From a virus, in the IMG/VR virus record IMGVR_UViG_3300041964_000087, positions 1 through 64,000 of that record: a DNA stretch of 64,000 nt; one strand, 5' to 3'. The position numbers and the translations under genes were made by a program. Below the pieces are notes generated by a model. The model saw only the letters and a program-made list of their open reading frames with translations. It made no database searches and was not told the DNA's origin. Below are positions 2,686-49,826 of this stretch, piece after piece; positions within the stretch are counted from its first letter, which is position 1, and the number at the start of each line of letters is the position of its first letter.

Positions 2686-3524
2686 CCCAAATACTAGGTA
2701 TTGCAAGGGTTTCAGGTTACAATAGTAGAAAGATTTCGCTTCCACTCGTGCCCGGTGGTGACAACACCGGAGAGTTTCAGGAAGCGGGGCAATTAGCACA
2801 AAAAAGGACTTTGTGTAATGCAATTTCATATTACTGTGTTGCGAGATGCGATCGCAATGGGCTTCCTTGTGGAGGTGCGATCGTGAGCGATCAAAGCAAG
2901 CAAGTGCTGCGATTAAAAGACATTCCAACAGGACGCGAAGGGTGGGTTTACCTAATCCACGCGGTTGGAACTAGTCGATACAAGGTTGGACGTAGTGTTA
3001 ATCCGGTGGCAAGACACCAAACCCTACAAAACCAGTCGCCCTACCCACTAAAGATTGTTGAGTGCTTTTGGACAGTAGATGCGCCAACGGATGAAGCGGG
3101 GTGGCACAAGCAGTTATCAGAATACAGGGTATACGGAGAATGGTTTGAGCTAATTGACAAAGAGGCAAAGGCTCACTTAAACGGATTCTGTACTGGATCA
3201 GCCGTTGGTGTAGACATTTCCGGAGGATGGCTTCAGGATTTTCTTGAGAAGTTGCTAGTGGAGGACACTAGAAGGCGAATTAATCATAAATTCACCGAGT
3301 CTGGGATTTTTCGACTTTACGATTTATTTTCAACCGTTTACGAGGCGACAACAGGAAGACAGCAGCTAGAGCAGCTAACTTCCTTTCTGACGGTTGTAGC
3401 ACCAGAAAAAACCAAGGCTTACTTCTATGGTTTTGAAGAAGTCAGATTTGAAGAGCTTCACTGCTATGTCACCGGATTAATAGAAGCGTTTGCCTTGCTA
3501 GTCCTGAAAAAGGAGTGGCTGTAA
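2682..3524 (+). CDS. GIY-YIG-like (T5orf172/MUG113-type) nuclease protein
   Basis: From about residue 85 it reads GWVYLIHAVGTSRYKVGRS, then HKQLSEYRVYGEWFEL, the pattern of T5orf172/MUG113 domains, a GIY-YIG nuclease branch. The C-terminal half has no motif I know. The start is uncertain: ATG 2682 overlaps the previous stop, but GTG 2883 has a near-ideal GGAGG seven bases upstream and begins just before the conserved domain; the first 67 residues from ATG 2682 look less protein-like. The gene leads into the replication initiator, whose ATG overlaps its stop. Probable DNA-processing or homing-type role; substrate unknown. Confidence 0.75.
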   Translation: MTQILGIARVSGYNSRKISLPLVPGGDNTGEFQEAGQLAQKRTLCNAISYYCVARCDRNGLPCGGAIVSDQSKQVLRLKDIPTGREGWVYLIHAVGTSRYKVGRSVNPVARHQTLQNQSPYPLKIVECFWTVDAPTDEAGWHKQLSEYRVYGEWFELIDKEAKAHLNGFCTGSAVGVDISGGWLQDFLEKLLVEDTRRRINHKFTESGIFRLYDLFSTVYEATTGRQQLEQLTSFLTVVAPEKTKAYFYGFEEVRFEELHCYVTGLIEAFALLVLKKEWL

Positions 3525-4633: not shown

Positions 4634-5385
4634 TTGACCACGACACATGGGCATCCGGACTCGCTTTACTCTGTACTCATTTCAACCTTGACCTGATTGA
4701 TTCCCCTGTAGAGTCCATCTGGCGTGAATACCTTGACTCTCAACTCAATTCGGGACAGTTCACTAAGGCAGTCAAGAGCGCAGTAATCAAGCTTCCTGTT
4801 AATAAACCGCCCACCCCCGAACAGTTAGCTGAATTTGGCGGCAGTGGCAAGAAAATGCAAATCATCGCCCAGTGGGAGCGCATTGAAGAGGGCAGGAAAC
4901 GCGGTGGGATTGCCCCTGGAGACGTGAAAGCGTACGACAGCCTTATAGACTCCCTTGACCTCGACTTAGTTGCTTTAAAGGCGCTTAAAACGCTAGGCGG
5001 CATTTTGACCCTATCTCGACTTAGTGACGAGGCTATCCGATGGACTCGCAAGGAATTCTTCGAGCTATACGAAGCTTGGGACGCACAGCGAGAACAGTTG
5101 GAGTTAGAGGCTGAGGCAATCAACTCTGTTCGAGCGTTCCGCGCGGAACAGATGACCCAAGCAATCGAAGCCTCACGACAGAAGTACATTGCTGCTTTGC
5201 CGCCTGCGAGTTCTCCCATCGTTGAGGAGACTGTTTTGAATGAGATGAAAGAAGCATCCGAGAGAATGGCGATTCCAGCTAAGCCAGTGAAGGTGGTTGG
5301 GACGGCTGGTGAATACCAAGCGATCGCAAGAGATGTGATGGAGACTTGGCGACTAACCGGAAAGATAAACGAGGTTGGTTTCTAA
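4630..5385 (+). CDS. Possible helicase-loader (lambda P-like) protein
   Basis: A 251-residue protein whose ATG overlaps the stop of the initiator gene. The N-terminus (WASGLALLCTHFNLDLIDS; IWREYLDSQLNSGQFTKAVK; NKPPTPEQLAEF) has the helical pattern and the (F/P)PTPEQL-type element of phage helicase-loader N-domains such as P and G39P. The C-terminal half is highly helical and ends in a short domain after residue 225. No Walker motif is visible, so it is not a DnaC-type ATPase. The call rests mainly on position after an O-like gene. Confidence 0.55.
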   Translation: MIDHDTWASGLALLCTHFNLDLIDSPVESIWREYLDSQLNSGQFTKAVKSAVIKLPVNKPPTPEQLAEFGGSGKKMQIIAQWERIEEGRKRGGIAPGDVKAYDSLIDSLDLDLVALKALKTLGGILTLSRLSDEAIRWTRKEFFELYEAWDAQREQLELEAEAINSVRAFRAEQMTQAIEASRQKYIAALPPASSPIVEETVLNEMKEASERMAIPAKPVKVVGTAGEYQAIARDVMETWRLTGKINEVGF

Positions 5386-17583: not shown

Positions 17584-18364
17584 TAACTAGGCGATCGCCT
17601 GTATTATCAACTGCCCCAACAGTCGCCACGCTCTTTCCCGCAATCGTGACATCTGAAGCGTTGGTGATGGCGATCGCTTTTCCCGCTGCATCCCAAGACC
17701 ACTGACCCGCGCCCATCACCCACTTGGAACCGTCAGCGCTGGCAAAAGTCCATACCCCATTTGTCATCTCTGCATAAGCGCCGCCTTGAGTAAACCTAAT
17801 CCGGTCTGCCGCCTCAACTCTCACAGTCCCCACACCAGACGCCAATGCAGTAAACAGCAGTTCCCCAAACTCTGAATCAATCTGGTAGGTTTCACCCTTG
17901 CAGGTAATCGTCACGTCCCCGCCAATTTCCTCGGTAACTGCGCCATCAACACCAACGAAGCGATCGCCCTTCACAAGCTGCCTGTCATCTCCGGGCAGTT
18001 TTGTCGTGTTGTCCAATACTGGGGCGAGTTGTCCCGTGTCTGGCGGGTTGGTCTGGTTGGATAGGGTGCGAAGGAAGAAAGGCTTGTGAGGGTCGCCATC
18101 TACGAGGCTAATTAAGACGTGCGTACCTACTGGTGGGATGGGTTCATCAGTGACGCTGGTAGACCTACCGCAGGGGAACCAATCACTCTCAGCTTTCCCC
18201 CCTTGTGCCTGCCTTGTCACCCTAATCCGTCTCATCCCAGTGGGGTCGTCGTTGCGGGTCACAATCGCTTCTTGAATGGCTGGCTGACGGTGCAACAGTT
18301 CCCTAATTTGAGGAAGTAAGCGGACGAGTTCAGCAAGTGCAGAGGTGAAAGAGGGCGATCGCAT
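17570..18364 (-). CDS. Baseplate spike protein gpV
   Basis: Forms the membrane-piercing spike. The N-terminal helix (LAELVRLLPQIRELL) is followed by the gpV OB-fold: IVTRNDDPTGMRRIRVTRQ, PPVGTHVLISLVDGDPHKPF, then a beta-helical C-terminal shaft (GGDVTITCKGETYQID; ITNASDVTIAGKSVATVG). P2 gpV and Mu gp45 have this order. I chose ATG 18364 over an upstream TTG. The gene is separated from the other baseplate genes by the plus-strand early cluster at 14.8-17.6 kb. Confidence 0.85.
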   Translation of the reverse strand: MRSPSFTSALAELVRLLPQIRELLHRQPAIQEAIVTRNDDPTGMRRIRVTRQAQGGKAESDWFPCGRSTSVTDEPIPPVGTHVLISLVDGDPHKPFFLRTLSNQTNPPDTGQLAPVLDNTTKLPGDDRQLVKGDRFVGVDGAVTEEIGGDVTITCKGETYQIDSEFGELLFTALASGVGTVRVEAADRIRFTQGGAYAEMTNGVWTFASADGSKWVMGAGQWSWDAAGKAIAITNASDVTIAGKSVATVGAVDNTGDRLVTRGW

Positions 18365-18395
18365 TTGTAACAAGGGTAAAATAGTATTTTACTGG

Positions 18396-18761
18396 GTGGT
18401 CGATGTGTTGCCCAAAAGCATTTTAATTATTGAAGATAATCCTGCTATTTTAAATAATTTGGCAGAACTCTTAGAAAGTAGAGGCTATCTTCCATTAATC
18501 GCAGATAACGGTTATTCGGGGTTGCAAATGGCGATCGCATATCAACCCGATTTGATTTTGTGTGATTTGCATATTGGCGGATTATCGGGATTGCAAATCG
18601 CTAAAACATTGCGGAATCGGGGTAACGCTACACCCATTGTGTTTCAAACAGCGGATGTTAAGAAAGAAGTACTTGAAGAATTAGAGGGCTTCGGTGAGGT
18701 CGTTTACAAGCCTTTTTCTATTGATGAAATAATGGGCGTTGTTGATAAGTTTTTGAAATGA
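18396..18761 (+). CDS. CheY-like response regulator
   Basis: A single receiver domain. Visible are the acidic pair in ILIIEDNP, the phospho-acceptor Asp in LILCDLHIGGLSG, the switch Thr in VFQTADV and the Lys in VVYKPF, so all catalytic residues are present. No output domain follows, as in CheY/Spo0F types. The start is uncertain among GTG 18396, GTG 18405 and TTG 18408; an upstream GTG at 18345 would overlap the spike gene start. An AT-rich stretch near 18376-18391 could be its promoter. A receiver in a phage tail region suggests interference with host two-component signalling. Confidence 0.8.
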   Translation: MVDVLPKSILIIEDNPAILNNLAELLESRGYLPLIADNGYSGLQMAIAYQPDLILCDLHIGGLSGLQIAKTLRNRGNATPIVFQTADVKKEVLEELEGFGEVVYKPFSIDEIMGVVDKFLK

Positions 18762-18762
18762 T

Positions 18763-18869
18763 AAACCCCTCATCCTAAAACAAGGGGTTTCGTTGCGTTG
18801 AGTTGAAAAGTGACGTGTAGCGACGTGATGAGGCGAGTCGAGTTGAGGCGAGGAGAGATGAATCGCCAC
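18763..18869 (+). repeat. Hairpin-pentamer element, unit 1
   Basis: An 8-bp stem (AAACCCCT with AGGGGTTT, 18763-18790, 12-nt loop) is followed, after TCGTT, by 15 pentanucleotides at 18795-18869. All 15 begin with G, none has G second, and 12 have G third. Examples are GAGGC, GTGAC and GAGTC. Followed by a 25-bp sequence (starts CACTCTATCTTAAAGC) that is repeated after unit 2. It lies two bases after the response-regulator stop. Confidence 0.85.
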
Positions 18870-18884
18870 TCTATCTTAAAGCAA

Positions 18885-19008
18885 ATCGCCCAAGGGTTAG
18901 CTTAGGCGATCGCTCGTTGTGTTGTATTGAGGCGTGATGAGCTGAACAGAGAAGAGATGAAGAGTGACGTGTAGAGTCGAGGAGTGTAGAGTGGAGCCGA
19001 GATGTCAC
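18885..19008 (+). repeat. Hairpin-pentamer element, unit 2
   Basis: Stem ATCGCC/GGCGAT (18885-18910), then TCGTT and 18 pentamers (18919-19008), all beginning with G and none with G second; the last is GTCAC. A 39-bp stretch covering this hairpin is identical to 19833-19871 in unit 3. It forms a tandem pair with unit 1 and runs toward the 3' end of the convergent BRO gene. Confidence 0.85.
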
Positions 19009-19029
19009 TCTATCTTAAAGCAAATCGCC

Positions 19030-19707
19030 CTATTCTCTGCTGACGAGCATTGCGAATGGGTTCCCGACTGCGCTTATTGCGGTTTCCATCCGAGCAAACA
19101 ACGTTGGGTTACGCTTCTCTGCACAAACACTAAAGCGATACCGATGTTTAGGGCAAACCTCAATCATGTCGAAAAGTCCCCCTCGCTGAAAATACAAACA
19201 GTGTCTTGCTGCTGTACTTTTTCCTATTCCACACCCCTCAGCTAGCTCTTGGGCTGACATCCAGCGATCAGTGTCCTTGAGCAAGCAATACACCTTAAGC
19301 TGAGTCAGGCTTACTTCTGCGGTTTCTAAAAAGCGAGAGTGATTCTGGCTTGTTTCAGACGCTTTTTTAACAGGAGTAATAGGCGTGCTATAACTTCCCG
19401 TTTTGCGAATACTAGGGAGAACATCGTGAAGTACCCATCGCTTAAAGCTTTTGGCAACTGGCTTGCGAGATTTAAAAATTAGGTGATACAGCCCAGCTTC
19501 TGTCACTGTAAGCATTTCTTGACTACCACCAAGGGTGCGAACAATCTTCGCACCCTTTTCATCATCATCTAAACCACCAAGAGCTTTGCTGGTGTCAGTT
19601 AGCTCAAGGCAAAAACAAACATCCTGGGCTACCCATTCTGGACTGTCTGCCGTCCCCACGAAGCGAACATCTATATCCTTGAACCGAAAAACTGATAAAT
19701 TAGTCAT
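19030..19707 (-). CDS. BRO-N domain antirepressor-like protein
   Basis: Residues 1-105 are a BRO-N domain: DIDVRFVGTADSPEWVAQDV, GLDDDEKGAKIVRTLGG, LTVTEAGLYHLIFKSRKPVA and FKRWVLHDVLPSIRKTGSY. The C-terminal half has a winged-helix pattern (LTQLKVYCLLKDTDRWMSAQ; GIGKSTAARHCLYF). BRO proteins bind DNA and in phages often act as antirepressors. The gene is flanked by hairpin-pentamer pairs on both sides, and the upstream palindrome at 19751 may be its operator. Confidence 0.88.
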   Translation of the reverse strand: MTNLSVFRFKDIDVRFVGTADSPEWVAQDVCFCLELTDTSKALGGLDDDEKGAKIVRTLGGSQEMLTVTEAGLYHLIFKSRKPVAKSFKRWVLHDVLPSIRKTGSYSTPITPVKKASETSQNHSRFLETAEVSLTQLKVYCLLKDTDRWMSAQELAEGCGIGKSTAARHCLYFQRGGLFDMIEVCPKHRYRFSVCAEKRNPTLFARMETAISAVGNPFAMLVSRE

Positions 19708-19750
19708 GTCGCCTAGTTCTGTTAGGTTGACCGCGCCTCTGGGTATTTAG

Positions 19751-19767
19751 AGTACCGCAGAGGTACT
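19751..19767. promoter_or_regulatory. Palindrome upstream of the BRO gene
   Basis: AGTACC, five bases, GGTACT forms an inverted repeat 44 bp upstream of the BRO start, next to an AT-rich stretch (TAAAAT on the coding strand) that could be a -10 element. Plausible operator; not proven. Confidence 0.35.
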
Positions 19768-19836
19768 ACTCTATTTTACCATTAAGTAATTGCTGGCAGC
19801 CTTATGTTGCAAGGCTTTCCCCTATCAAAAAAGCAA

Positions 19837-19935
19837 ATCGCCCAAGGGTTAGCTTAGGCGATCGCTCGTTGCGTTGTGTTGAGGCGTACTGAAGAGAGAC
19901 GAGCTGAGTCGAGGCGAGGCAAGTCGAGGTGTACC
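19837..19935 (+). repeat. Hairpin-pentamer element, unit 3
   Basis: Same hairpin as unit 2 (39-bp identity), then 13 pentamers at 19871-19935. Twelve begin with G (the exception is AAGTC), none has G second, and it ends with GTACC. Seven bases separate it from unit 4. Confidence 0.85.
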
Positions 19936-19942
19936 AAATATA

Positions 19943-20040
19943 ATACCCTCCATCCAAAGACAAAGGGTATCCGATGAGTTGAGAGGAGTAGAGCCGAGCT
20001 GAGGCGAGGCGAGGCGAGTCGAGTGGCGCTGTAACGTCCC
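19943..20040 (+). repeat. Hairpin-pentamer element, unit 4
   Basis: Stem ATACCCT/AGGGTAT (19943-19970) with a loop resembling that of unit 1, then CCGAT and 13 pentamers (19976-20040), all starting with G and ending with GTCCC. It stops seven bases before the stop codon of the convergent gene at 20047. Confidence 0.85.
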
Positions 20041-20046
20041 TACATT

Positions 20047-20541
20047 CTACTTGAACGCTCTCAAATCCTCTATCAACGCTTGTTTATCCAGCATCTGCTC
20101 AGGTGACTTAATCACACGTTCCCTCAAAGCCTTGTCTGTATCTTTGGTAGAAAACGCTTCCCTCAACCCCAGATAAGCCATTGATAAGCCATACTCAACC
20201 CGTTGGGAGTGAGTCAGTTTAGCAGGTTCAACACATTCAATCTTCTGTCTATATATTTGGGTGTCACTCTTCAGCCGCTTGCCATGAACATCGTTTGCAT
20301 GGCGGCTGATATCTTTGTTGGCAAGGCGAGTAAAGCCCCTACCAATCTCACACCGAAGTACAACCGAATACTCCTTTTGGACAATACCGCAAGCTGTTTC
20401 AATAAAGTGTCGATAACGCTTTTGAACATCACAGTTAGCGATCGCGTTCAAGTCTTCATAGGAGATAAACTCACCTTCTTTCAAATCACGGAACGTTTGG
20501 ACTAACTGCTGAGTAATAGGCGATCGCTTATCAGTTTTCAT
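20047..20541 (-). CDS. Unknown protein between repeat pairs (164 aa)
   Basis: ATG 20541 overlaps the end of the upstream gene, indicating coupling; a longer start would run far into that gene. It opens with KRSPITQQLVQTFRDLKEGE and FISYEDLNAIANCDVQKRYR, a helical pattern like a winged-helix or initiator-type N-domain, followed by RGFTRLANKDISRHANDV and a basic helical C-terminus. No known family. Genes at 20047 and 20531 form a two-gene unit enclosed by hairpin-pentamer pairs, so either could act on those repeats. Confidence 0.65.
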   Translation of the reverse strand: MKTDKRSPITQQLVQTFRDLKEGEFISYEDLNAIANCDVQKRYRHFIETACGIVQKEYSVVLRCEIGRGFTRLANKDISRHANDVHGKRLKSDTQIYRQKIECVEPAKLTHSQRVEYGLSMAYLGLREAFSTKDTDKALRERVIKSPEQMLDKQALIEDLRAFK

Positions 20542-21118
20542 CGTTAAACTCCATCGTTGCAACCTTGAACCGTCCGAAGTATCCGTTATTCCGTGGACGA
20601 AAACGACCAATTCCAATCAATCGCCCTGCTTGTTCTAGATGTCGTTTCAACACATCCTCTGTGATAGTGTCGTCATAGACTAGGAACTCTACCGTTCCCT
20701 GCCATTTATAGATAACTGGATAACATTTCTGAACCCGTTTACCACTACCTCGAACACCATCAGCCGGATAGAAGCCCCATTCACCAACCCAGTCATCTTT
20801 AAGGATTGGTTGCTCGTCTAAGTCCATGAGGTACATGGGTTCAATGCACAGGATACCCGCTTCAAAGTGCTTAGTCCATGTTGACTTACCTTTGCCTGGT
20901 ATCTGCTCACCCAGAAACTTTGCCGCTTCAGATAAAGCGTTTTTCAGTGCCATGTTAGGGACAAATGTTTTGCCGTCTTGGTCAACATGAATCCGCTCTT
21001 TCCAGGTTCGTTCCTCATAGGCGTCTGCTAATTCTTTGTTGAGCTTTGGTGTGTTGTGAAACTTTGACTGAGAGTAGGGCGTTAATCCTACTAAATGCGC
21101 GATCGCAACTTTCGACAT
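20531..21118 (-). CDS. Unknown protein between repeat pairs (195 aa)
   Basis: Begins MSKVAIAHLVGLTPYSQSKF, with a central FVPNMALKNALSEAAKFLGE and a C-terminal ITEDVLKRHLEQAGRLIGIG then FRPRNNGYFGRFKV. The overall layout (strand, long loop, helix with KNAL, terminal GIGRFRP...GRF) recalls a widespread phage/mobile-element family I know only as hypothetical, with a faint similarity to Cas7/RAMP-type proteins that I cannot test. ATG 21118 is preferred over an upstream start. Units 5 and 6 of the repeat element lie just upstream on the same strand. Confidence 0.65.
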   Translation of the reverse strand: MSKVAIAHLVGLTPYSQSKFHNTPKLNKELADAYEERTWKERIHVDQDGKTFVPNMALKNALSEAAKFLGEQIPGKGKSTWTKHFEAGILCIEPMYLMDLDEQPILKDDWVGEWGFYPADGVRGSGKRVQKCYPVIYKWQGTVEFLVYDDTITEDVLKRHLEQAGRLIGIGRFRPRNNGYFGRFKVATMEFNDEN

Positions 21119-21144
21119 AACTATTTTGTGGAGAATAGCGAACA

Positions 21145-21180
21145 CCTATACTATACACAATGCAGTATCGCAGTAATGCA
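21145..21180. promoter_or_regulatory. Repeat-rich upstream region of the 20531 gene
   Basis: Contains AATGCAGTAT, AATGCAGTG and TTGCATT in direct and inverted arrangement. Its complement includes ACTGCATTACTG, a 12-mer also found at about 32311 next to the start of an accessory head/tail gene. Candidate operator. Confidence 0.3.
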
Positions 21181-21198
21181 GTGTTGCATTAATATGGA

Positions 21199-21277
21199 AA
21201 GGCGTCGCAGTTCGACTCCCCTCAATTCGTCTCAGATCGACACAACGCATCTGTACCCCTTGCTTCGGTGAGGGGTA
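21199..21277 (-). repeat. Hairpin-pentamer element, unit 6
   Basis: On the minus strand: stem TACCCCT/AGGGGTA (21254-21277) with loop CACCGAAGCA, then CAGAT and ten pentamers (21248 down to 21199), all beginning with G, none with G second, ending GCCTT. Shortest and most degenerate unit (six of ten with G third). Confidence 0.8.
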
Positions 21278-21285
21278 TCATATTA

Positions 21286-21377
21286 GGGACGACTCCACTC
21301 CTCTCAGCTCGCCTCTGCTCCACACTTCTCCTCTCTTTGCAGCACATCGCAACGGATGCCCTGCTTCGGTGGGGCAT
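21286..21377 (-). repeat. Hairpin-pentamer element, unit 5
   Basis: On the minus strand: stem ATGCCC/GGGCAT (21356-21377) with the same loop CACCGAAGCA as unit 6, then CCGTT and 13 pentamers (21350 down to 21286), all beginning with G and ending GTCCC. Eight bases separate it from unit 6. Stem bases differ from those of the other units while pairing is kept. Confidence 0.85.
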
Positions 21378-21384
21378 TGCATTG

Positions 21385-35639: not shown

Positions 35640-35762
35640 TCCTTTAAGGCAAAAGGCAAAAGGCAGGAGGCAGAAGGAAAATACCATTGCGCTTAATACC
35701 TGACTGCTTGCTCTTGCCTCGTATTGATAACCTTCTGCCATCTGCCTTCGTACTTCTGCCTT
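35640..35762. repeat. Heptamer-type inverted repeat element
   Basis: GGCAAAAGGCAAAAGGCAGG at one end and CCTTCTGCC...CTTCTGCCTTC at the other form imperfect arms of a small element that fills the gap between two head genes. The same sequence type occurs at 44470-44585 and inside the portal gene near 48.0 kb. Confidence 0.75.
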
Positions 35763-36631: not shown

Positions 36632-36752
36632 AAATACGCAGAGTTTTTCGTATCTAGGTGGTAGGTGGTAGGTCGTAGGTTGCACCCGAAGAGGTTGGAG
36701 GTTGGAGGTTGGAGGTTTCTTCTACCACCTACCACCTAACCCCTATCACCTA
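36632..36752. repeat. Intergenic repeats downstream of the capsid gene
   Basis: Starts with a dispersed hairpin repeat (AAATACGCAGAG..., 36632-36655, with CGTAT pairing ATACG), then GGTGGTA-type heptamers, three GGTTGGA units and an inverted copy (CTACCACCTACCACC). Same style as the 2.1-kb repeat. No gene in this gap. Confidence 0.7.
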
Positions 36753-44464: not shown

Positions 44465-44587
44465 CTTTTTTAATGAAGGCAGAGGGCAGAGGGCAGAAGC
44501 TTGAATTCTTCCTTATTAAAACCTTCGTCGTCATCGCCTTACTTTTATCTCTCCTTCTGCCCTCTGCCATCAAACTTCTGCCTTCGT
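44465..44587. repeat. Heptamer repeats and inverted copy
   Basis: GAGGGCA-type heptamers (around 44470-44490) with an inverted copy, CTTCTGCCCTCTGCC, about 70 bp away. Same family as 35640-35762 and the insertion in the portal gene. No gene is seen in this gap. Confidence 0.75.
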
Positions 44588-46646: not shown

Positions 46647-47695
46647 TTTTCGGTTACACCCGCCTCTTTAAGCAGTTTTTCAACTTGAGTTGTTAGCAGC
46701 GATCGATACTCGCCAGATCTGACCATCTTGTCTTTTGCTTTATCAGGAGAGTCATTGTCGAGAGTGCTTTTGGTGATGGTGTCGGATAACTTCAAAGCTC
46801 CCTTGCTTGAACCTTCTAGGTCATTCCGCACCATTGCCTTGGCTACATCTTCAATATCCTTTGAAGTCGCTTGCGGATTTTCTTTCTTTAAATATGTCGT
46901 GAGTAAGCCTTCATATTCTTTGGTTTTGTACAGTTCTTGCTTTGGCTCTTTTTCAATCCCATATTTAAACAAAGCTGTTGACGCTTTTAATCCAGTTTTG
47001 TTTGACCCTTCTATATCATTCTGTATCAGGCTATCCGTAATTTCTTTGGCGGCAGCAGAAGACTTTTTCCCTCGCTTTAATGAATCCGCGTCTTTCTGAG
47101 CCTTATCAAGTATTGCCTTGTCTTTAGCATCCCTATCCCGACTAGCTTTACTTTTGGCATCAAGCGCCGTTTTCTCCCGTCCTGCCTTCATCTCCCGTCG
47201 CTTCTTGGCAAGGGAAGTATCCACCCGCCCTTTATTCCGCAGCGCTTTGTCATGAACTCGCTTCTCTTCTGGGGTCATTGTCTGACGGCAAGCCTCCCCG
47301 CCCTTCAAGCATCTGCCACCGCAGGGACCGATCTTACACTTAAAGTTCTTAGCATCACGCTTGGTTTTAGCAAAGTCCTCCACCCCTTCAGAGAATTTTT
47401 CAATATCGTCAGCGTTGAGAGCTTTAAACTGAATCTCATCACTACCAAAAATGAAGCTGAAGCGCTTGGTCAGACGTGGATTGACATACTGCTCAAACCT
47501 ACCCTTGAAGTTTCCGCCATCATCTAGGGTGACATTAACAAACCGAGTGATTCGACCACGTAGCCGTTTCTCATAAACAGATCGAATTTCTCCAAGAGTT
47601 TCTTCATCTGTCACCGCCTCGTCAGCAAAGTCTAGCGCCAACCCCCGAAACGCTTGCCCCAGTTCACTAAATGCGATCGCCTCTCTAGTCAACAT
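46643..47695 (-). CDS. CGGRC-module protein 4, duplicated C-terminal domain
   Basis: Fourth paralog, 350 residues from ATG 47695 (MLTREAIAFSELGQAF), overlapping the end of the portal gene by 11 bases. Module: VNPRLTKRFSFIFGS, LNADDIEKFSEGVEDFAKT, CKIGPCGGRCLKGGEACR, DTSLAKKRREM. The C-terminus has two copies of a 55-residue unit (LIQNDIEGSNKTGLKAS; MVRNDLEGSSKGALKLS), each ending EYxxLLTT. No catalytic motif. Sits between portal and MuF, a position from which MuF-associated effectors are often encoded. Confidence 0.78.
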   Translation of the reverse strand: MLTREAIAFSELGQAFRGLALDFADEAVTDEETLGEIRSVYEKRLRGRITRFVNVTLDDGGNFKGRFEQYVNPRLTKRFSFIFGSDEIQFKALNADDIEKFSEGVEDFAKTKRDAKNFKCKIGPCGGRCLKGGEACRQTMTPEEKRVHDKALRNKGRVDTSLAKKRREMKAGREKTALDAKSKASRDRDAKDKAILDKAQKDADSLKRGKKSSAAAKEITDSLIQNDIEGSNKTGLKASTALFKYGIEKEPKQELYKTKEYEGLLTTYLKKENPQATSKDIEDVAKAMVRNDLEGSSKGALKLSDTITKSTLDNDSPDKAKDKMVRSGEYRSLLTTQVEKLLKEAGVTEK

Positions 47696-49826
47696 CTCTA
47701 TCCAACCTTTCTGAATACATCCCAGCAAAATATCCCGCCGCTAGACTCTCACCCAACTGGGATGCGATCGCGTCTCTATCCATCTCAGAATACAAGTCAT
47801 ACATCCCATCGAGTAGCGTCCTGAATTTCTCCTCATCCGTACCATCACCACTTGCCACTTGGTCAATAAAATCCTGAATTTTCTTGAGGTTGGGTGCGAT
47901 CGCTTCTGTTAAACCTGTCGCTGCTCGTTGCTCGTAACTATCCGCCAAATCCTCTAAGGAAGGCAGAGGCGACGCTCCTGTCGTCGCTACCGCTGCGCTA
48001 TCGAGGGCAGAGGGCAGAAGGGAAAACTCTGACGCTCCTGCGTCGCTACCGCTATCGCTATCGACTTCTGCCTTCTGCCTTCTGCCTTCTGCCTTCTGGT
48101 AGCGCCTCAAGTATTCCAGAGGGACTTCTTTACATCCCCCATACATTTCACGAGGGTAGTGATAGAGGTAGTTGGCGATCGCATCTTCAGCCGAACCAAA
48201 CCACAGCATTATCTTCGGCTCTGGGTCATCTCCTATTTGGTCAATCTCAAAGATGCGGTTACTGTCTTGTCTCAGTCCCACATAGCAATCAAGACTCTTG
48301 CCGTCTGGGGCGTAGTGGTTGCGGATATGTCCGTAGCTAGCGGCGAGTGGGATTCCGCGTGCGTCGCTTCCAATCGAGTGTTGGATTCCTATCTCCAACC
48401 CATTCCACTTAATCAGCTTCTTCGTGGGTTCACTGAACTCCTCTTCAGTCTCCTCTTCCTCTACCGCAGCGGGCCCTTCCGGTTCCACGGGCAAAGTAAA
48501 GGCTTCCCCGTAGGTTTCCTTGATGTAAGCTGGGTCAACTGACAACCCAAGGTCAAGGATTAACGCTTTATCAGTTGTTGCCCGTCCGTCGCGCTTCTTC
48601 TCCTTCGCCTCTTCAACAAGCCTTTCCTGCTCAAGCCTGCGTCGTTCTGAGTAAGTCTCACGCCGGATAATTGGCGGATTAGCGTTGCTCCAGTTGAGTT
48701 CCCCTATCAATTGCCACAAAGTAGCCAAGGGACTCTCATCTAAACTGTTGCAGTCGCTATCAATGATATTTTCGTTCCTATTCTCGCTCTGCTGTTGTTC
48801 AGCGGCGTAGGAACCCGTACTTTTCTCTGAGTATGAACCCTCACCCCATACAGCGCGCGCAATCTCCAAGGCTGCTGTGTCGTAGAGCCATTTGAGAACG
48901 TCATGCCCTTCTGACGTAGTAACTGGGAATTTAATTTCAAAACCCGTTGTAGTTGCTAAGTGGGCATTAGGACTAATCGCCCGCAGCAATCTATCAAACG
49001 CACCAAGGATTATCTGGTCTTGTGGGTCTTGAGGGTTCAAGGTGTCAGGGTAGGTGCCGTGAACGGGTGGGGAACCCAAGCGATCGCCTGTCAATACCCC
49101 AGACTTCATCGCCTCCTTTCTAATCTCGTAGAACTTGCGGATTCTATAACCCAGTCCCAGACCCCAAGGCGAACCCTTCACGCTGCCGTGCGCGTAACAG
49201 ACAAAGCGATTCTTCGGACATCTCACTCCGTCGATTGAATGCTCTTTGGTCAAGAGCCTCAACTCGTATCCATTGACAATAACAATGTCCTCTTTTGGAT
49301 CAAGTTCTTCCCCTGTAGCGGTGGGGATGCTTTTGTTCTCCGGCTCCCGATAGCGGAAGGTAAACCTTCTTTGCGGAACAACCTCACAAGTCGGGAGAAT
49401 TAATCCCTCTTTCTTTTCCCAGTCCAGTGCCACAACACTGAACCCAATCAGAAGCGCTGAATAGAGGAAATCACGGCAGATGGCTTCGTAAGGGAAAAGA
49501 TTCTTTTTCGCCTGCTTACCTTTGACGGATTCCTCATCGTCGTGGATATCGAGTAACCACTTAACCTTGTTCGCCGCTTCAACATCAGCTTTATTATCCG
49601 AGGCAGCATCAACCAAAACCGCACGACCCAGCAGCGCACCAACCCGCTCATCTAATTTCCCGCTCACCGCAGGGTCAATGAGCATTTCCTCATAACGACA
49701 GAAGTCACCCCCTAGGCGTTGGTAGAGGTAAGTGTCTTCTGGGTCGGGTCCGTTGTTGAATACCCAGGTGATTAGGTTTGGGTCAGTTTTGGTGAGTTCT
49801 AGCTTGGTGCGGGTGTCAAGTGGCAT
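47685..49826 (-). CDS. Portal protein (Mu gp29-like) fused to InPase-like domain
   Basis: Residues 1-460 are a DUF935 portal: VSGKLDERVGALLGRAVLV, YEAICRDFLYSALLIGFSVV, CPKNRFVCYAHGSVKGSPWG, GLGYRIRKFYEIRKEAMKSG, ARAVWGEGSYSEKSTGSYAA. After an acidic linker there is a domain with QHSIGSDARGIPLAASYGHI, GKSLDCYVGL and IMLWFGSAEDAIANYLYHYP, which matches the phage 'InPase' domain (PF18823 type, from memory). Then QKAEGRRQKAE, encoded by heptamer repeats, and a DUF935-like tail. The InPase unit is thus inserted before the portal tail. At 713 residues the protein is longer than Mu gp29 (about 510). Confidence 0.9.
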   Translation of the reverse strand: MPLDTRTKLELTKTDPNLITWVFNNGPDPEDTYLYQRLGGDFCRYEEMLIDPAVSGKLDERVGALLGRAVLVDAASDNKADVEAANKVKWLLDIHDDEESVKGKQAKKNLFPYEAICRDFLYSALLIGFSVVALDWEKKEGLILPTCEVVPQRRFTFRYREPENKSIPTATGEELDPKEDIVIVNGYELRLLTKEHSIDGVRCPKNRFVCYAHGSVKGSPWGLGLGYRIRKFYEIRKEAMKSGVLTGDRLGSPPVHGTYPDTLNPQDPQDQIILGAFDRLLRAISPNAHLATTTGFEIKFPVTTSEGHDVLKWLYDTAALEIARAVWGEGSYSEKSTGSYAAEQQQSENRNENIIDSDCNSLDESPLATLWQLIGELNWSNANPPIIRRETYSERRRLEQERLVEEAKEKKRDGRATTDKALILDLGLSVDPAYIKETYGEAFTLPVEPEGPAAVEEEETEEEFSEPTKKLIKWNGLEIGIQHSIGSDARGIPLAASYGHIRNHYAPDGKSLDCYVGLRQDSNRIFEIDQIGDDPEPKIMLWFGSAEDAIANYLYHYPREMYGGCKEVPLEYLRRYQKAEGRRQKAEVDSDSGSDAGASEFSLLPSALDSAAVATTGASPLPSLEDLADSYEQRAATGLTEAIAPNLKKIQDFIDQVASGDGTDEEKFRTLLDGMYDLYSEMDRDAIASQLGESLAAGYFAGMYSERLDRDVD
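47958..48100. repeat. Heptamer repeat element inside the portal coding sequence
   Basis: Four TTCTGCC heptamers (48065-48098), GAGGGCAGAGGGCAG and two copies of a GACGCTCCTG-TCGCTACCGCT string. The intergenic repeat type of 35.7 and 44.5 kb is here read in frame, giving QKAEGRRQKAE and SLLPSALDSAAV. Confidence 0.85.

What the first reader, a model, noticed from the sequence alone, without database searches (positions are those of the whole stretch)
18763..21377. Six hairpin-plus-pentamer elements in three tandem pairs
Seen: units at 18763-18869, 18885-19008, 19837-19935, 19943-20040 (plus strand) and 21286-21377, 21199-21277 (minus strand). Each is a short hairpin followed by 15, 18, 13, 13, 13 and 10 pentanucleotides in strict 5-nt register. 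Of 82 pentamers, 81 begin with G, none has G at position 2, and 64 have G at position 3 (mostly GAGNN). Arrays tend to open with GCGTT/GTGTT and close with GTCAC, GTACC or GTCCC. Stems change in sequence but keep pairing (AAACCCCT/AGGGGTTT, ATACCCT/AGGGTAT, TACCCCT/AGGGGTA, ATGCCC/GGGCAT, ATCGCC/GGCGAT), which points to selection on structure. Known analogy: TRAP binds 11 (G/U)AG triplets spaced by two bases, also a 5-nt period. Inference: a non-coding RNA (or single-stranded DNA) that wraps on a multimeric protein. I know no described family with this layout.
Basis: partly seen in the sequence, partly recalled or inferred. Interest (0 to 1): 0.93.

Follow-up and report, generated by a model that had tools for sequence, protein, structure and literature searches.

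The report
Phage RNA-guided VIPR guide-RNA locus
A virus of cyanobacteria carries six small guide RNAs written in five-letter repeats next to the CRISPR-like protein that reads them; this is a newly reported system (VIPR) with which phages silence rival phages, here in a variant spelling.

Summary
In detail: six arrays, 82 pentamers, strict 5-nt register, all beside one gene pair of a cyanophage. It is not an orphan RNA. The 204-aa ORF next to the arrays (20531-21118, minus) is a Vipr protein. It matches SUSP1 Vipr in the PDB (E=1e-5; 4.7e-14 with a family profile), and its predicted fold (pLDDT 94) matches CRISPR Cas7-type RAMPs. Vipr and its guide RNAs (vrRNAs: YNNGG pentamers plus a 3' tail) were described in a 2026 preprint (PMC13142463). 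The neighbouring ORF (20047-20541) is homologous to SUSP1 vap1. On the opposite strand each unit reads: -10 box, (NN-C-D-C)n, AACG, G.U-rich tail hairpin. The -10 box is present in 13 of 13 units of three related phages (background 1.2%). The code triplet is therefore CDC, not the published GGY. Similar arrays occur in over 100 viral contigs, and most multi-array loci carry Vipr. A related array (L087) spells out rival vipr genes under the published one-base-skip rule, with every skipped base a codon wobble position. No target was found for the window's own arrays. Whether CDC/NN is already in the preprint's supplement could not be checked.

The parts
20531..21118 (-). vipr gene (about 195 aa from ATG; ORF with upstream GTG is 20531-21145): Cas7-like RAMP that binds the vrRNAs
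   Evidence: PDB 36pp_D SUSP1 Vipr E=1e-5, 4.7e-14 with family profile; AlphaFold pLDDT 94; Foldseek top hits all CRISPR RAMPs; G-loop GRLIGIGRFRPRNNGYFGRF
20047..20541 (-). vap gene (164 aa): predicted winged-helix DNA-binding accessory protein, overlaps the end of vipr
   Evidence: homologue of SUSP1 vap1 (L161, E=7e-8 at round 1, 1e-25 later); model pLDDT 93, H-E-H-H-E-E order then helices; Foldseek only weak wHTH matches, best E 0.06
18755..18870 (-). vrRNA 1: (NNCDC) array 18795-18869, 3' AACG, tail hairpin 18763-18790
18879..19009 (-). vrRNA 2: array 18919-19008, tail hairpin 18879-18915
19831..19936 (-). vrRNA 3: array 19871-19935, tail hairpin 19831-19867 followed by a T-rich stretch (terminator-like)
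19942..20041 (-). vrRNA 4: array 19976-20040, tail hairpin 19942-19971 (terminator-like)
21284..21378 (+). vrRNA 5: array 21286-21350, tail hairpin 21355-21378 with UUCG loop
21197..21278 (+). vrRNA 6: array 21199-21248, tail hairpin 21253-21278 (UACCCCUUGC-UUCG-GUGAGGGGUA)
18873..18878 (-). -10 box TAAGAT of vrRNA 1
19012..19017 (-). -10 box TAAGAT of vrRNA 2
19940..19945 (-). -10 box TATTAT of vrRNA 3 (inside the tail of vrRNA 4)
20044..20049 (-). -10 box TAGAAT of vrRNA 4 (overlaps the vap stop codon)
21276..21281 (+). -10 box TATCAT of vrRNA 5
21190..21195 (+). -10 box TAATAT of vrRNA 6
21119..21189 (.). divergent control region between vipr and vrRNA 6, with repeated GCAGT/AATGCAGT motifs
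   Evidence: sequence, tandem repeat 21159-21193

Best explanation
The arrays are six guide RNAs (vrRNAs) of a VIPR system carried by a cyanophage. Each is its own short transcript on the C-rich strand: start just after a -10 box, 10-18 pentamers NN-CDC (D = U, A or G, never C), the constant end AACGCAACG or a variant, then a 3' tail hairpin that may double as terminator or processing signal. Vipr, a Cas7-like protein encoded beside them, would coat the RNA with one subunit per pentamer, holding the CDC triplet out of pairing and presenting each NN. The NNs together would recognise double-stranded DNA with one unread base between pairs, which in coding targets falls on the wobble position. Binding would block transcription of a rival phage or prophage gene; the winged-helix Vap would assist. 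Shown here: homology and fold of Vipr, homology of Vap, arrays, -10 boxes and tails, linkage across many phages, and a natural target under the one-base-skip rule for a relative. Inferred: transcription, RNA binding and silencing in this phage, and the identity of its targets.
For: Vipr: PDB hit SUSP1 Vipr and tblastn to SUSP1/SUSP2 phages; model pLDDT 94 with RAMP folds as top PDB hits. SUSP1, LESphi2 and LittleE have GGY/NN arrays flanking their vipr homologue. Among loci fetched by array pattern alone, 55 of 77 with two or more arrays carry a Vipr and 37 also a Vap, against 5 of 43 with one array. Strand: -10 TANNAT at -9/-10 in 13/13 units, background 1.2%; tail more stable on the C-rich strand in 11 of 13, with UUCG/UUNG loops; terminator-like sites on minus for vrRNAs 3 and 4; C-rich strand parallel to vipr for 197 of 221 arrays and 68 of 81 Viprs. 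Code: L087 array matches vipr genes of L068 (20/20), L083 and L096 (19/20) with 1-nt skip at DGQVFIPPMAFK, in frame, and about 20 vipr genes at 16/18 or better. Mechanism from PMC13142463.
Against: No target was found for the window's own arrays in viral contigs, cyanobacterial genomes (one 3-mismatch hit, about as expected by chance) or the related phages. Position 3 of the pentamer is only 78% C in the window. No -35 box is evident. Outside the cyanophage group the sequence 3' of the arrays does not favour the C-rich strand by folding energy. No RNA data exist here. Only one clear natural target case was found for this code class.
Confidence: 0.9

Rival explanations
1. It is VIPR, but the guide is the G-rich strand (GHG/NN), closer to the published GGY/NN, with the hairpin at the 5' end.
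For: G-rich as in SUSP1, where array and vipr share the strand. The decoded target pattern is the same for either strand, so searches do not decide.
Against: -10 boxes 13/13, G.U-dependent tails and terminator-like sites on the C-rich strand. L154 (57% identical Vipr) has arrays on the vipr strand ending TCGCAAG/AGCAACG, like the C-strand AACGCAACG. In L158, tRNA-like elements fix the strand as AAC/NN.
Confidence: 0.12
2. RNA that wraps on a TRAP-like ring (GAG spaced by two bases) and acts as a regulator or decoy.
Against: The linked protein has the RAMP fold and is a Vipr homologue. In relatives GAG becomes GCG or GTG, which a GAG reader would not keep. Positions 4-5 carry target sequence in L087.
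Confidence: 0.02
3. Degenerate microsatellite or intergenic repeat family without function.
For: Some pattern hits elsewhere are true microsatellites, for example L056 (GTGCC)n.
Against: Positions 1-3 constrained and 4-5 near uniform, recurrent starts and ends, promoters and tails per unit, linkage to vipr/vap, readable target.
Confidence: 0.01

Closest known systems
VIPR system type II of Escherichia phage SUSP1 (PMC13142463; KT454805; PDB 36pp)
   Same: Vipr RAMP homologue, vap1 homologue, several vrRNAs of about 100 nt up- and downstream of the genes, 5-nt repeats with two variable bases, 3' tail hairpin
   Different: Repeat triplet CDC (or GHG if the strand is wrong) instead of GGY; each vrRNA seems to have its own -10 box; two vrRNAs diverge from the operon; cyanophage
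CRISPR class 1 Cas7/Csm3-type RAMP effectors
   Same: Subunit fold, glycine-rich loop, one RNA segment per subunit (fold match)
   Different: No CRISPR array, no other cas genes; pairing read in dinucleotides with gaps
TRAP (MtrB) and its (G/U)AG-N2 leader RNAs
   Same: 5-nt period of triplet plus two bases
   Different: Unrelated protein; in TRAP the spacer bases carry no information

Membership tests
VIPR | Vipr protein: about 20 kDa RAMP with RRM core and G-loop, related to SUSP1 Vipr | tested here: met
VIPR | vrRNA: tandem pentamers, conserved triplet alternating with hypervariable NN, 9-16 repeats | tested here: met
   10-18 repeats, register and NN variability; triplet is CDC, a 'related consensus', not GGY
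VIPR | GGY as the conserved triplet (the consensus given in the main text; the paper also allows 'a related consensus', so this is not required of every type) | tested here: not met
   C-strand triplet CDC (G-strand GHG); the related consensus is in fig. S17, not readable here
VIPR | Invariable structured 3' tail after the repeats | tested here: met
   AACG or similar plus hairpin on the C-strand in all six units; structure kept, sequence too divergent for one consensus stem
VIPR | vap accessory gene next to vipr | tested here: met
   vap1 homologue; fold
VIPR | Phage or provirus location, minimal locus flanked by vrRNA-bearing intergenic regions | tested here: met
   virus record with Mu-type portal, terminase, baseplate genes; ORFs
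VIPR | NN read on DNA with 1-nt skip | tested here: inconclusive
   met for relative L087; no target found for the window's arrays
VIPR | vrRNA expression and co-purification with Vipr | not testable with these tools
   no RNA or protein data
CRISPR class 1 | CRISPR repeats and further cas genes | tested here: not met
   neither the ORFs and family scans around the locus nor the tandem-repeat scan show cas genes or CRISPR repeats
TRAP-binding leader | TRAP-family ring protein as partner | tested here: not met
   linked protein is a RAMP

The most novel reading that the evidence does not exclude
VIPR has several repeat alphabets (GGY, RGY, GTT, AAC, CDC), so Vipr's triplet preference is plastic. 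The cyanophage clade forms a CDC/NN type, with base bias on the opposite strand to the published ones and with individually promoted vrRNAs, and members of this class are aimed at rival VIPR genes.
Probability: 0.6. Interest if true: 0.8.

Novelty: new variant of a known kind. Interest (0 to 1): 0.74.

Why it matters
VIPR is proposed as an ancestor of CRISPR RAMP effectors and is a very small programmable DNA-recognition system. This locus puts it in phages of cyanobacteria. It also points to a repeat triplet different from the one characterised, which would mean the protein's RNA grip can change while the dinucleotide code stays. The L087 case is a sequence-level check of the one-base-skip rule in that class, with one VIPR guide aimed at other VIPRs.

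Tried and rejected
Rfam found nothing in the window or in 13 related loci. Target searches for the window's arrays: five 8-pair exact scans of viral contigs gave only chance hits, with flanks matching at 14-25%. Two scans of 291 and 380 cyanobacterial genomes gave no hit for unit 2 and one 3-mismatch hit for unit 4, about the chance expectation. One Devosia array in 136 family genomes gave none. A first all-against-all decode was swamped by low-complexity arrays and overlaps; the filtered version is. In one search the window hits to L250, L210 and L282 are discarded, because those loci had been fetched by 8-pair patterns. A general folding test of strand over 255 arrays was uninformative, since tandem arrays and ribosome sites fill the flank. 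BLASTN of the region against known phages found only the BRO gene. The TRAP analogy was dropped once Vipr was identified.

Full report
What is there. The record is a 69.7-kb virus contig with contractile-tail, Mu-type portal and terminase genes; HIP1 sites (GCGATCGC) and heptamer repeats suggest a cyanobacterial host (inference). The arrays lie around three minus-strand genes: a BRO-N antirepressor (19030-19707), a 164-aa ORF (20047-20541) and a 195-aa ORF (20531-21118).

Identity. A literature search found one paper with this layout: the VIPR preprint PMC13142463. VIPR is a phage-encoded Cas7-like protein, Vipr, that uses vrRNAs of YNNGG pentamers plus a 3' tail, and reads DNA through the NNs with one base skipped. 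The 195-aa ORF hits the deposited SUSP1 Vipr at E=1e-5 and 4.7e-14 with a 31-sequence profile, the only PDB hit. Its AlphaFold model (pLDDT 94) has as its best PDB matches subunits of type VII and type III CRISPR effectors, and among viral predictions a protein named 'Cas system-associated RAMP superfamily'. The 164-aa ORF belongs to the same family as SUSP1 vap1; its model begins like a winged helix, but Foldseek support is weak. SUSP1, LESphi2 and LittleE, found by tblastn with the window protein, show GGY/NN arrays around their vipr homologue.

Spread. Of those with two or more arrays 55 of 77 carry a Vipr ORF, of those with one array 5 of 43. Genome contigs gave eight relatives, including a Pantanalinema (cyanobacterium) and Devosia riboflavina, seven of them with arrays.

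Strand. On the C-rich strand each window unit reads -10 box, NNCDC repeats, AACG or similar, hairpin. TANNAT starts 9-10 nt before the first pentamer in all 13 units of three related phages, against 1.2% background. The hairpins gain extra pairs (mostly G.U) and UUCG/UUNG loops only on that strand; the C strand is the more stable in 11 of 13, one is equal and one favours G. Two are terminator-like on minus. With this strand the locus is coherent: vipr, vap, vrRNA 4, 3, bro, vrRNA 2, 1 all on minus, vrRNA 6 and 5 divergent. Across loci the C-rich strand is the vipr strand for 197 of 221 arrays. Of 81 Viprs, 68 have this orientation, and the ten best scored as GGY on the vipr strand include the SUSP1-like ones. 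L154, whose Vipr is 57% identical, carries RGY/NN on the vipr strand; L155 GTT/NN; L158 AAC/NN. So the triplet varies while the 5-nt layout stays.

Code. I decoded 318 arrays over 2.3 Mb. With 10-pair windows the 1-nt skip gives two 20/20 and five 19/20 sites; skip 0 none, skip 2 two at 19, shuffled order one at 19. Three of the seven involve loci fetched with a decoded pattern and are discounted. Of the other four, three are one array, L087 5553-5632, against the vipr genes of L068, L083 and L096: GA-TG-CA-GT-TT-AT-CC-CC-AT-GC-TT-AA spells D.QVFIPPMAFK, each skipped base a wobble base. In a scan of vipr and vap genes all hits of this array at 16/18 or better are in codon frame, nearly all at this conserved site. 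A rough estimate of my own puts a 23/24 match by chance anywhere in this data set at about 0.003, before counting that it lies in frame in a vipr gene. L087 shows terminase- and portal-like genes, and the Vipr model found none on its 8-kb contig. [quoted passage not shown]

What is not shown. No target of the six window arrays was found. Units 3, 5 and 6 were not tried against genomes, and unit 6 not against viral contigs. Transcription, binding and silencing are inferred from the homologue. Which of the paper's seven types this is could not be decided, because its supplement is not readable here; CDC/NN may already be listed there as a 'related consensus'.

Noticed in passing
L158:7278-8128 (viral contig 3300028883_000018): AAC/NN arrays on the vipr strand are separated by six copies of a 41-45-nt mini-tRNA: mostly a 6-7-bp acceptor stem plus 5-bp T-arm with TTCGATT loop, no anticodon arm. 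This looks like tRNA-punctuated guide arrays cut by RNase P/Z. The main text of the VIPR preprint mentions hammerheads and staggered arrays, not this.
   Followed up: partly
L163:3150-3200, 3285-3335, 4750-4800 (Mycobacterium phage LittleE): T-arm-like elements (GGTTCGAGTCC under a closing stem) also bound GGY/NN arrays in this unrelated phage; ARAGORN calls no tRNA there.
   Followed up: partly
L087:5553-5632: A lone vrRNA-like array with hairpin beside terminase- and portal-like genes, no vipr found on the contig, decodes to a conserved stretch of vipr genes: a possible anti-VIPR guide.
   Followed up: yes
window 35646-35681, 36655-36752, 44553-44585, 48065-48098: Short tandem heptamer repeats (AAGGCAA, TAGGTGG, GAGGTTG, CTTCTGC and others), like the STRR repeats of filamentous cyanobacteria; not related to the pentamers.
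   Followed up: no
window 47685-49826: Mu-type portal protein with a C-terminal inorganic-pyrophosphatase-like domain in one ORF.
   Followed up: no
window 18345-18761: A response-regulator receiver gene on plus ends directly at the tail of vrRNA 1, amid phage tail genes.
   Followed up: no
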